Origin: Solirubrobacterales bacterium
GTDB lineage: Bacteria; Actinomycetota; Thermoleophilia; Solirubrobacterales; 70-9
Direction: 5' to 3'
DNA: 64,000 bases
Assembly: GCA_023958085.1 (NCBI GenBank)
Contig: JAMLGI010000006.1
Coordinates: forward strand, 1-64,000
Shown here in pieces: positions 21,966 to 25,909 of this stretch. Positions within the stretch are counted from its first letter, which is position 1, and every line of letters starts with the position of its first letter. The position numbers and the translations under genes were made by a program. Below the pieces are notes generated by a model that saw only the letters and a program-made list of their open reading frames with translations, was not told the origin of the DNA and ran no database searches.

Positions 21966-22098
21966 AATGCGGTCAATCCTCCTGGGAGAAGTTGGTGAAA
22001 GGCCAGTATGGCAACTGGGAGGCCCTTTCCGGCTCCCGCCGAAGTTGAGAGCCGGACGGAGCGGGTACCGGGAAGTATCCTGCCGAAGCGGAAGCCGT

Positions 22099-22911
22099 AT
22101 GAACGAGACCGAACTGAGCGTTGTCTGCAAGTCATGCGGGGCCGAGGTGAGCCCCTACGTGACCGAGTGCCCGTACTGCGGAACCCGGTTGAGGAAGCGG
22201 GCCCCGGAGCTCGAACGGCGGGACGGCGGCCTCGAACCGAAGCGCTCCCGCCGGGAGCGGCGCCGGGAACGCAAACGTGCTGCCCGGGCCCGGCGTCGCA
22301 ACTCCCCGACCCCGGACTCCCGGGCCGAACGATTCAGCGGCACGTACTCCCTGGCGGCTCTGATCCTGCTGGCGGTTCCGGCGATCGCCCTGGTGGTCCG
22401 GATCGCGTTCGGCTGGTCCCCGATCGATTTCGGCGCCCTGGTCGTCCCGATCGAGCAGAGCTGGTGGCGGTTTCTCGCTACCCCGTTCGTCTACGGGTCG
22501 ATCGGGTACGCCTTCGTGGTCGGCCTCGTCCTGGCCGTTTTCGTGCCGGGCATCGAACGTCGGCTCGGAACGGTTCCGACCCTGCTCCTCCTTGTCGCCT
22601 GCGGCGTGCTCGGTGCAGTTGCTGCCTACGGGATCGGGACAGCGGTCGGGGGAGTGACCGTGATCAGCGGCGGCAACGGAATCGCCCTGGGTGCGATCGC
22701 CGCCTGGTACTTCACGTCCCGAACCGGAATCCGGTCGTCGGGCGAGGCCCCGGACCTGGCCGGCCTCGCGGTCTGCGCCGCGGTTGTCCTGCTCCTGCCG
22801 CTCGTGGTCGACGGGGTGTCTGCCTGGGCGGGACTGGTCGGCGGGCTGACCGGCGCCCTGGGCGGGCTGCTCGCGGACCGGGCCGGCAGACGGTCGGGCC
22901 GGGGACTGTAG
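22099..22911 (+). CDS. Zinc-ribbon protein with catalytically dead rhomboid-like membrane domain
   Basis: A 270-residue protein. Residues 10-32 hold a CxxC...CxxC zinc ribbon (CKSCG, CPYCG), followed by a very basic linker (about 50-80) and six hydrophobic segments. The layout matches rhomboids, but the serine motif GxSG is replaced by SGGNGIALG and the TM6 His is missing (SAWAGLVGGLTGALGG). It is therefore predicted to be a pseudoprotease that binds or holds membrane proteins rather than cutting them. The ATG at 22099 starts just before the zinc ribbon. The next gene starts ten bases after its stop. Confidence 0.65.
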   Translation: MNETELSVVCKSCGAEVSPYVTECPYCGTRLRKRAPELERRDGGLEPKRSRRERRRERKRAARARRRNSPTPDSRAERFSGTYSLAALILLAVPAIALVVRIAFGWSPIDFGALVVPIEQSWWRFLATPFVYGSIGYAFVVGLVLAVFVPGIERRLGTVPTLLLLVACGVLGAVAAYGIGTAVGGVTVISGGNGIALGAIAAWYFTSRTGIRSSGEAPDLAGLAVCAAVVLLLPLVVDGVSAWAGLVGGLTGALGGLLADRAGRRSGRGL

Positions 22912-22920
22912 GCTCCGGGC

Positions 22921-23307
22921 GTGGCTGAACCGACCTTTTCCGAGGAAGAACTGAGGGCGGCGGTCGAGCGGCTGGGAGATCCCGAGAGATTTCGTGAAGC
23001 CGAGGCCGTGGTTGCCTCCGCCGCCCCGGAACTTCAGACGGTGCTGGTCACCGCGCTGGGCAGCGGGGGGTGGTTCGGCGAGTCTCACCAGACCGAGACC
23101 CTGAAAGCGGCCACCATCCCGGACGAGGACCAGCGCCTCACCGCGGTCCGGGCGCTTCTGACCGAGGAGACGCATCTCGGGATGATGGTCGGAGTAGCGG
23201 TCGGCTGGGCCTTGAGAAAGGAGCTGACAGCCGCGACCGGATCCGGCCCGGGTTCGGACGAAACCCTGGAAATCGGCGGCGAACCCGCCCCCATCGAGGA
23301 GAGCTGA
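22921..23307 (+). CDS. Conserved-looking protein of unknown function
   Basis: A 128-residue acidic, mostly helical protein starting at GTG. Visible segments are LGDPERFREAEAVVASAAPELQ and LGMMVGVAVGWALRKEL. Spacing of three bases before the next ATG indicates cotranscription with the UPF0173 hydrolase. I do not recognise a functional domain. Confidence 0.6.
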   Translation: MAEPTFSEEELRAAVERLGDPERFREAEAVVASAAPELQTVLVTALGSGGWFGESHQTETLKAATIPDEDQRLTAVRALLTEETHLGMMVGVAVGWALRKELTAATGSGPGSDETLEIGGEPAPIEES

Positions 23308-24109: not shown

Positions 24110-25669
24110 CTAGCGGTTGGGGCCGGTCGGAGTGCCGCTGCCACCCGGGCTCGGGGCACCCGGGGCGATCGGCGGGGCCGGCTCGCTGACCGGCGGGGTG
24201 CTGGTTCCGGGAGCCTGGGGTGCGCTGGGCTGGGCGGGCGCGGTTGCCGGAACCGAGGGGTCCACCGGGGGAGCGGCCGGGTCGGTCGGAACGTTCACGA
24301 CCTCACCGTCAAACCCTGCGTCACCGCCGTTGTGGCTGGTGTCACTGGCGGGGGTGCCGGTCGTGGTTGAAGGCTGCGAGTCGATCGCCGGGCTGCCGTT
24401 CTCGGCCAGTGCGGGCGGCGGGGTCGGAGCCGGGGCCGGGGCCGGTTCGGCCGGCGGGGCCGGAACCGGTTCGGTGGCCGGTTCGGCGGCGGCCGGATCG
24501 ATTGCCGGGTCGGCGGGCGGAGTGGCGGACTGAACCGTCCGGATCGGGTCCGCCATCGGCTTGGGCAGGTCGGCGGCCACCGTCTTCGTGGTCGGGCTGA
24601 CTCCTTCGTTGGCGCCGCTGGAAACCACCTTGCGCTTGACCTCGACCGCACCGGCGGTGATCACCGCGGCGGTCACCACCCCGGCCAGGGCCTTGGCCCC
24701 GACCGCGCCGGTGACGGCGCTGATCCCGGATGCGGCGGCGCCACCTGCTCCGGCACCGACCGCTCCGGCACCGGCGGCTCCGGCCGCGGTGGAAGCTCCT
24801 CCGGCGGCTCCGGCTCCGGCACCTGTGCCGGCGGTTGCCCCCGCTCCGGCGCCACCACCGAATCCGAGCTTGCCGGCGATCGCGGCCTTGAGGGCCAGGA
24901 TCGGCCCGACCGGGCTGAGCATCGCCAGCACCTTGGTGTCGCTTCGAAGCTGTTTGCGGAAGGCCGCGCACTCCTCACAGTCCCGGACGTGCTTGCGGAC
25001 CGGGCCGGATGCCTTGGCGAGACCCTCGGCCGCCTCGGCCAGCTCCACCCGGACCTCGCCGCAGGTGAGCATCCGGGCCTGGCTGGCCTCGGCCAGCGAG
25101 ATCCGGGCCCGGACCAGCAGTGACTTGACCGAGGGGACCGTGGTGTCCATCGCTTCCGCGATCTCCTCGTAGGAAAGTTCGTCGATCTCCCTCAGCAACA
25201 GGGCGACCCGCTGGGTCTCCGGCAGCTTGGTCACGTCCTGGAGCAGCTGGCGGAACTCCTCCCGGTTGTGCACCTTCTCCGCGGTAGAGGCGGCCTCGGT
25301 CATCGGGACCAGGTCCATCGATTCCTGGGCGACCGCGCGAGGCTTGCGCAGATGGTTGAGCGACCGGTTGCGGGCGATCCGGTACAGCCAGGGGCGAAGG
25401 TTGATCTCGCGATTGTCGGCGAGGATCGCCTTGTGGGCGTTCACGAAGACTTCCTGGAGGACATCCTCGGCGTCCTCGGTCGATCCGACCATCTGGCGGC
25501 AGAAACCGAGCAGCCGGGCCTGGTAGCGATCGACGATGATGTCGAAAGCACCGGAGTTGCCGCTTCGCACGAGGGCCACCAGACGCTCGTCGCCCTGCAT
25601 CTTGAGCAGGGGAGACTTGCGGGTGAGCAGTCCTCGTCGGGCTGCGTGACTGAGTGCTGATGCTTCCAA
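24110..25669 (-). CDS. ECF-type sigma factor fused to a zinc-binding anti-sigma-like domain, membrane helix and Pro-rich tail
   Basis: A 519-residue protein. Sigma region 2 (AFDIIVDRYQARLL, EDAEDVLQEVFVNAH) covers about residues 30-95 and region 4 (LPETQRVALLLREID, YEEIAEAMDTTVPSVKSLL) about 130-185. Next comes H-x3-C-x2-C (HVRDCEEC) with an upstream Cys, the zinc-finger signature of ZAS anti-sigma factors. An Ala/Gly-rich stretch, one likely transmembrane helix (ALAGVVTAAVITAGAVEV) and about 170 Pro/Ala residues end it. This implies a membrane-held sigma factor under built-in control. The TTG at 25669 is chosen because AAGGAG lies correctly upstream. Confidence 0.8.
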   Translation of the reverse strand: MEASALSHAARRGLLTRKSPLLKMQGDERLVALVRSGNSGAFDIIVDRYQARLLGFCRQMVGSTEDAEDVLQEVFVNAHKAILADNREINLRPWLYRIARNRSLNHLRKPRAVAQESMDLVPMTEAASTAEKVHNREEFRQLLQDVTKLPETQRVALLLREIDELSYEEIAEAMDTTVPSVKSLLVRARISLAEASQARMLTCGEVRVELAEAAEGLAKASGPVRKHVRDCEECAAFRKQLRSDTKVLAMLSPVGPILALKAAIAGKLGFGGGAGAGATAGTGAGAGAAGGASTAAGAAGAGAVGAGAGGAAASGISAVTGAVGAKALAGVVTAAVITAGAVEVKRKVVSSGANEGVSPTTKTVAADLPKPMADPIRTVQSATPPADPAIDPAAAEPATEPVPAPPAEPAPAPAPTPPPALAENGSPAIDSQPSTTTGTPASDTSHNGGDAGFDGEVVNVPTDPAAPPVDPSVPATAPAQPSAPQAPGTSTPPVSEPAPPIAPGAPSPGGSGTPTGPNR

Positions 25670-25711
25670 CGGTTCTCCTTCGACTGGTTCCCAGACCGAA
25701 CCTGGAACTCT

Positions 25712-25734
25712 CTTACGGACAACAACACCGTAAG
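25712..25734. promoter_or_regulatory. Perfect 7-bp inverted repeat upstream of the sigma gene
   Basis: CTTACGG (25712-25718) and CCGTAAG (25728-25734) are separated by nine bases, about 43 bases upstream of the chosen TTG. The surrounding 80 bases are much more AT-rich than the genome around them. Position and symmetry suggest an operator or part of the promoter; the protein that binds is unknown. Confidence 0.5.
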
Positions 25735-25909
25735 TGGCACGATGTAGCGCTTTATAAACGGTTTTCTCGCCGTTTCCTAAAGACGAATTCCGGCCCGGAA
25801 CGAACCTGCCCACTGATAATGGCAGGTCGGGACGTCCGGTTGGGGAGAATTCCCGATTCGGGCGCGGAAATGGCCCGGTAAATCGCAGCCAATGATCTAG
25901 GCTTGATCT

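What the first reader, a model, noticed from the sequence alone, without database searches (positions are those of the whole stretch)
24110..25734. Sigma factor carrying its own anti-sigma zinc finger, membrane helix and Pro-rich outer tail
ECF sigma regions 2 and 4 are followed in one polypeptide by the H-x3-C-x2-C signature of ZAS anti-sigma factors, then a likely transmembrane helix and 170 Pro/Ala-rich residues. Normally sigma and anti-sigma are separate proteins. This implies control by proteolysis or by a redox or metal switch in cis. A perfect CTTACGG/CCGTAAG inverted repeat lies upstream.
Basis: partly seen in the sequence, partly recalled or inferred. Interest (0 to 1): 0.6.

Follow-up and report, generated by a model that had tools for sequence, protein, structure and literature searches.

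The report
Sigma factor fused to its anti-sigma
This gene makes a transcription-switching protein that carries its own off-switch and possibly its own membrane anchor in one chain, a design already described in other Actinobacteria; here it is shared by nearly a whole bacterial order and seems to switch on its own gene.

Summary
Minus-strand gene 24110-25669 (519 aa; start is a TTG at 25669, not 25734) encodes ECF sigma regions 2 and 4, then directly a C203-x23-H227-x3-C231-x2-C234 zinc-binding anti-sigma (ZAS) domain, a charge-free Gly/Ala linker, an Ala/Val-rich hydrophobic helix and a Pro/Ala/Thr-rich tail. The quartet holds in essentially all of 46 orthologue sequences; 59 of 61 sampled genomes of the order (Solirubrobacterales) have a homologue. 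Profile comparison supports the ZAS assignment. The membrane helix is only marginal by hydrophobicity, so export of the tail is not established. The 'inverted repeat' is not a conserved palindrome: one arm overlaps the -10 of a strongly conserved ECF-type promoter (SCGCWACWT - fixed spacer - TACSGTGTY). Of 25 strict matches in 61 genomes, 21 lie directly upstream of this gene, which indicates autoregulation. A family of small secreted proteins in sister genera carries a similar promoter and is a regulon candidate. Sigma/ZAS/TM/Pro-rich fusions are already known (ECF48, ECF52, ECF53; SCO4117), and regulated proteolysis was already proposed for them. So this is a new member of a known kind, with a useful order-wide promoter footprint.

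The parts
24110..25669 (-). fused ECF sigma factor / anti-sigma gene, 519 aa, TTG start
   Evidence: ORF and conserved start with AAGGAG at 25680-25675; homologue in 59 of 61 genomes of the order
25601..25669 (-). conserved 23-residue N-terminal extension MEASALSHAARRGLLTRKSPLLK
   Evidence: present in orthologues across the order
25100..25534 (-). ECF sigma regions 2 and 4 (residues 46-190 from the TTG start)
   Evidence: Pfam PF04542 at 23-86 and PF08281 at 123-167 in P0001 numbering; AlphaFold2 model matches SigW, sigma-E, AlgU
24968..25063 (-). ZAS-type anti-sigma zinc domain core, C203-x23-H227-x3-C231-x2-C234
   Evidence: quartet at least 95% conserved in 46 rows; hhalign 97.2% to zf-HC2 paralogues; zf-HC2 matched in 14 of 28 members, best 0.0027
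24638..24694 (-). hydrophobic Ala/Val-rich helix, candidate transmembrane segment, after a charge-free Gly/Ala linker
   Evidence: KD 1.77, predicted helix 317-347, K326 near-invariant; marginal, not proven
24113..24630 (-). Pro/Ala/Thr-rich low-complexity acidic tail, no recognised domain
   Evidence: composition kept in orthologues, sequence not; no Pfam match
25724..25749 (-). ECF-type promoter: -35 CGCTAC (25749-25744), -10 TACGGTGTT (25732-25724)
   Evidence: two-block motif with the same gap in 36 of 42 orthologues and one base less in 3; only exact match in own genome; 21 of 25 strict matches in 61 genomes lie upstream of the orthologue
   Evidence: not conserved as a palindrome beyond close relatives

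Best explanation
The protein is a cis-inhibited ECF sigma factor. The ZAS domain fused to region 4 folds back on regions 2 and 4 and keeps the sigma inactive. The hydrophobic helix probably tethers the complex to the membrane, with the Pro-rich tail in or beyond the cell wall. A signal leads to proteolysis (site-1 and site-2 type) and removal of the ZAS part. The freed sigma then transcribes from -35 CGCWAC / -10 TACSGTGTY promoters, first of all its own gene, giving positive feedback. Shown here: the domain order, the zinc quartet, order-wide conservation, the promoter footprint and its near-exclusive link to this gene. Inferred: cis-inhibition, membrane tethering, proteolytic release, that the sigma itself reads this promoter, and positive feedback.
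For: ECF sigma domains. ZAS homology and a CHCC quartet kept across the order. Constant spacing from sigma to ZAS: H at the same residue number in all aligned orthologues. Order-wide presence with a shared tRNA-Leu(UAA) neighbour. ECF promoter motif, mean site score 18.3 versus 8.0 +/- 0.3 in shuffles, 21 of 25 strict matches upstream of the gene. No separate anti-sigma gene among the neighbours scanned. Two site-2-type M50 peptidase genes in the genome. For the ECF52 relative SCO4117, a version cut down to the sigma domain activated expression of its own gene (PMC5826349), and proteolytic release is the published proposal (PMC8999054).
Against: The transmembrane segment is weak in this clade, and charge bias does not fix the topology. 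The ZAS fold could not be matched on its own: structural hits covered only the sigma parts, and the full-length model was unusable. M50 peptidases occur in all 14 control genomes, so their presence says little. No cleavage, binding or expression data exist.
Confidence: 0.6

Rival explanations
1. Redox or metal switch in cis (RsrA/ChrR-like): oxidation or zinc loss at C203/H227/C231/C234 unfolds the ZAS domain and frees the sigma without proteolysis; the helix and tail only tether or position it.
For: All four zinc ligands are conserved, and C203/C234 fall where, from general knowledge, RsrA has its redox-active cysteines. The helix is weakly hydrophobic, which suits a cytoplasmic sensor.
Against: A conserved Pro-rich tail and charge-free linker have no role in this reading. 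The survey of class I anti-sigmas found the zinc motif in about half of the membrane-bound ones and argues for a structural role there (PMC7406223).
Confidence: 0.2
2. The fused domain is not inhibitory: the sigma is constitutively active or works while attached, and the extension only places it at the membrane or serves as a docking platform.
For: In ECF41, ECF42 and ECF238 proteins the extension is partly needed for activity (PMC8999054). The sigma-only SCO4117 strain did not show a simple gain of function (PMC5826349).
Against: The extension is homologous to inhibitory ZAS domains and sits at a fixed distance from region 4.
Confidence: 0.12
3. The conserved upstream element is read by another ECF sigma or is an operator for a repressor, so there is no autoregulation.
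For: AAC-type -35 elements are shared by many ECF sigmas (general knowledge), and the genome has several other ECF genes.
Against: The two blocks and spacing look like an ECF promoter and not a palindrome. The strict element tracks this one gene in 21 genomes. Close fused paralogues L140 and L141 show a similar -35 but another -10, as expected if each reads its own promoter.
Confidence: 0.15

Closest known systems
ECF52 group, SCO4117 of Streptomyces coelicolor (PMC5826349)
   Same: ECF regions 2 and 4, zinc-finger domain, transmembrane region and Pro-rich C-terminal part in one protein; evidence of autoregulation
   Different: SCO4117 ends in a carbohydrate-binding domain, absent here; its proposed motif CSGYN-17-SRHA differs from CGCWAC-N11-TACSGTGTY; here the transmembrane segment is weaker and a conserved 23-residue N-terminal extension is present
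ECF48 and ECF53 groups of Actinobacteria (PMC8999054)
   Same: described as fused ZAS plus one or two transmembrane helices in extensions of up to 400 residues, expected to be released by proteolysis
IutY of Pseudomonas putida (ECF243; PMC8999054)
   Same: sigma and membrane anti-sigma in one polypeptide; shown to be released by Prc and RseP
   Different: iron-starvation sigma of a cell-surface signalling system; no sequence comparison was made here
RsiW, RslA, RsrA, ChrR (class I anti-sigma factors with ZAS domain)
   Same: CHCC/HHCC zinc motif; zf-HC2 paralogues of this family match RslA and RsiW
   Different: separate proteins that act in trans

Membership tests
ECF (group IV) sigma factor | sigma-70 regions 2 and 4 without region 3 | tested here: met
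   Pfam and NCBIfam TIGR02937 (87.4 bits, cut-off 42.9); fold match to SigW, sigma-E, AlgU
class I anti-sigma (ZAS) domain | H-x3-C-x2-C with upstream fourth zinc ligand | tested here: met
   C203/H227/C231/C234 at least 95% conserved in 46 rows
class I anti-sigma (ZAS) domain | sequence-profile relation to known ZAS domains | tested here: met
   hhalign 97.2%, E 4.2e-11 to zf-HC2 paralogues, which match PDB RslA and RsiW; the window sequence alone has no zf-HC2 match
class I anti-sigma (ZAS) domain | ZAS fold match to a solved structure | tested here: inconclusive
   model predicts helices at 180-191, 199-207, 209-228 (P0001 numbering) with pLDDT 81-87, but structural matches covered only the sigma parts
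class I anti-sigma (ZAS) domain | binds and inhibits the sigma | not testable with these tools
   needs binding or transcription assay
ECF52 | zinc finger and Pro-rich extension after the sigma | tested here: met
ECF52 | transmembrane helix | tested here: inconclusive
   KD 1.77, but poor on a translocon-type scale
ECF52 | C-terminal carbohydrate-binding domain | tested here: not met
   no Pfam match in the tail; tail is low complexity
ECF48 / ECF53 | falls in the group by sigma phylogeny or group model | not testable with these tools
   no ECF group models on hand
sigma regulated by intramembrane proteolysis | cleavage and release of the sigma part | not testable with these tools
   two M50 peptidase genes present, but these are near-universal

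The most novel reading that the evidence does not exclude
A one-protein feedback switch kept by a whole bacterial order: the fused sigma/anti-sigma drives almost only its own gene through a private promoter conserved across many genera, plus in some genera a family of small secreted Lys-rich proteins, so one polypeptide is sensor, inhibitor, transcription factor and its own main target.
Probability: 0.25. Interest if true: 0.5.

Novelty: new member of a known kind. Interest (0 to 1): 0.32.

Why it matters
Fused sigma/anti-sigma proteins are known, but few have been studied in any depth (SCO4117, IutY). This clade offers a near-universal, syntenic orthologue set in a little-studied order (Solirubrobacterales), with an unusually clear promoter footprint. 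That makes cis-regulation and autoregulation of such fusions directly testable with a reporter, and gives a promoter sequence to search with. It does not overturn existing ideas.

Tried and rejected
Inverted repeat as a conserved operator: rejected, since close relatives keep only TACGGTGTTTCCGTAAG and most of the order keeps only the -10 half. Wider regulon in the window's own genome: with two mismatches, 18 matches versus 12 for the control pattern, i.e. near background. AlphaFold2 on 12 close orthologues including linker: pLDDT 38.9, discarded; second model with 42 sequences usable but without a separate ZAS hit. PDB search with the ZAS profile of this clade: only weak unrelated hits such as cytochrome b562. 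A conserved short motif in the tail: score 7.7 versus 6.1-6.4 shuffled, carried by close relatives, not claimed. Two class-wide genome searches with n=200-300 failed and were replaced by n=60. Phage collection: only generic sigma matches, none covering the fusion.

Full report
What is there. The window lies in a genome of the order Solirubrobacterales, judged from the closest records. On the minus strand an ORF ends at 24110. The ATG at 25600 is not the likely start: a TTG at 25669, preceded by AAGGAG, gives an N-terminus, (M/V/L)EASAL...(R)SPLL(K/R), that orthologues across the order also have. The protein is then 519 residues. Residue numbers below count from that TTG; P0001 numbering is 23 lower.

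Domains. Pfam finds sigma-70 region 2 and region 4 with strong scores, and PDB sequence searches return ECF sigmas. Immediately after region 4 comes LTCGEVRVELAEAAEGLAKASGPVRKHVRDCEECAAF. In 46 aligned rows, C203, H227, C231 and C234 are each conserved in at least 95%, and the H-x3-C-x2-C sits at the same residue number in every aligned orthologue. Pfam zf-HC2 does not reach E<1 with the window protein alone but is matched by 14 of 28 clade members (best 0.0027) and by all 7 more distant fused paralogues (best 1.3e-11). The two sets align by hhalign with 97.2% probability, E 4e-11, and the paralogue profile matches the anti-sigma domains RslA and RsiW in the PDB. The paralogues were picked because they carry H-x3-C-x2-C after the sigma part, a mild selection bias. 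I take the ZAS assignment as well supported by sequence; the fold itself was not matched separately.

Membrane part and tail. A Gly/Ala linker without charges leads to GAVGAKALAGVVTAAVITAGAVEVK, a predicted helix. Its Kyte-Doolittle mean is 1.77 (clade range about 1.3-2.0), but a simple translocon-scale sum is about +4 (scale values from memory), whereas some paralogues in other families score near or below zero. So the transmembrane claim is plausible, not shown. The tail is Pro/Ala/Thr/Glu-rich, varies in sequence, and matches no Pfam family.

Distribution. 59 of 61 sampled genomes of the order have a match, many with several relatives; class-wide 28 of 61 at E 1e-20, with weaker and more divergent fused forms outside the order. 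Across the phylum the best matches are mostly ordinary, unfused ECF sigmas, and three are fused to a hydrophobic helix without the zinc motif. The orthologue lies next to a tRNA-Leu(UAA) gene in nearly all loci examined, and in closer relatives beside the same metallo-hydrolase, rhomboid-like and aldolase genes.

Promoter. A seeded two-block search gives a mean site score of 18.3 against 8.0 +/- 0.3 when retrained on shuffled sequences; 36 of 42 orthologues have the same gap and 3 have one base less. This has the look of an ECF promoter (AAC-type -35). In the window it reads CGCTAC (25749-25744) and TACGGTGTT (25732-25724); one arm of the repeat is this -10. The full motif occurs once without mismatch in the genome, here. 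In 61 genomes of the order the strict pattern has 25 matches, 21 of them 77-154 bases upstream of the matched sigma reading frame on its strand; the reversed control pattern has 2 matches. The orthologues are related, so these are not independent events, but their proteins are as little as 46% identical to the window's.

Possible targets. Of the four other matches, two (G015, G007) lie 44-95 bases before start codons of proteins with signal peptides. Homologues of the G007 protein, a 265-residue Lys-rich secreted protein of no known family, occur in 21 of 31 genomes of the family, though not in the window's genus. About 15 of 22 distinct upstream regions score above 6.3 with the sigma motif, against 2.7% of 220 upstream regions of other ORFs. 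An unseeded search in these regions alone recovers the same GCGCAACTTC-like block (7.24 versus 5.7-6.3 in shuffles). Whether this sigma or a paralogue reads them is open.

How it most likely works. The ZAS domain inhibits in cis; a signal, most likely via proteolysis as proposed for ECF48/52/53 (PMC8999054) and SCO4117 (PMC5826349), removes it; the sigma then activates its own promoter. The zinc site could be structural or a redox sensor; PMC7406223 argues for a structural role in many membrane-bound class I anti-sigmas. Only architecture, conservation and promoter footprint are shown here.

Novelty. The architecture is already described; ECF52 has a carbohydrate-binding end that this protein lacks, and ECF48/53 membership could not be tested. 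New here, as far as the held library shows, is the order-wide set with its conserved start extension and promoter (library searches returned no description of it; absence from the library is not proof).

Noticed in passing
22096-22908 (+): Zinc-ribbon plus rhomboid-domain membrane protein (PF01694 2.1e-9) in which the usual GxSG catalytic motif appears to read GGNG, so possibly an inactive rhomboid; neighbours the sigma gene in close relatives too.
   Followed up: partly
L214-L243 (sister genera): Family of small secreted Lys-rich proteins with ECF-type promoters resembling the sigma's own.
   Followed up: partly
L140, L141: Close fused paralogues share the N-terminal extension and have a similar -35 but a different -10 upstream (GGTTAGAGT), suggesting separate autoregulated promoters.
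   Followed up: partly
G005 and other genomes of the order: Up to ten relatives per genome at E 1e-20, an expansion of this design within the order.
   Followed up: no
22921-23304 (+): Conserved 128-residue protein with no Pfam match, kept near the sigma gene in many genomes of the order.
   Followed up: no
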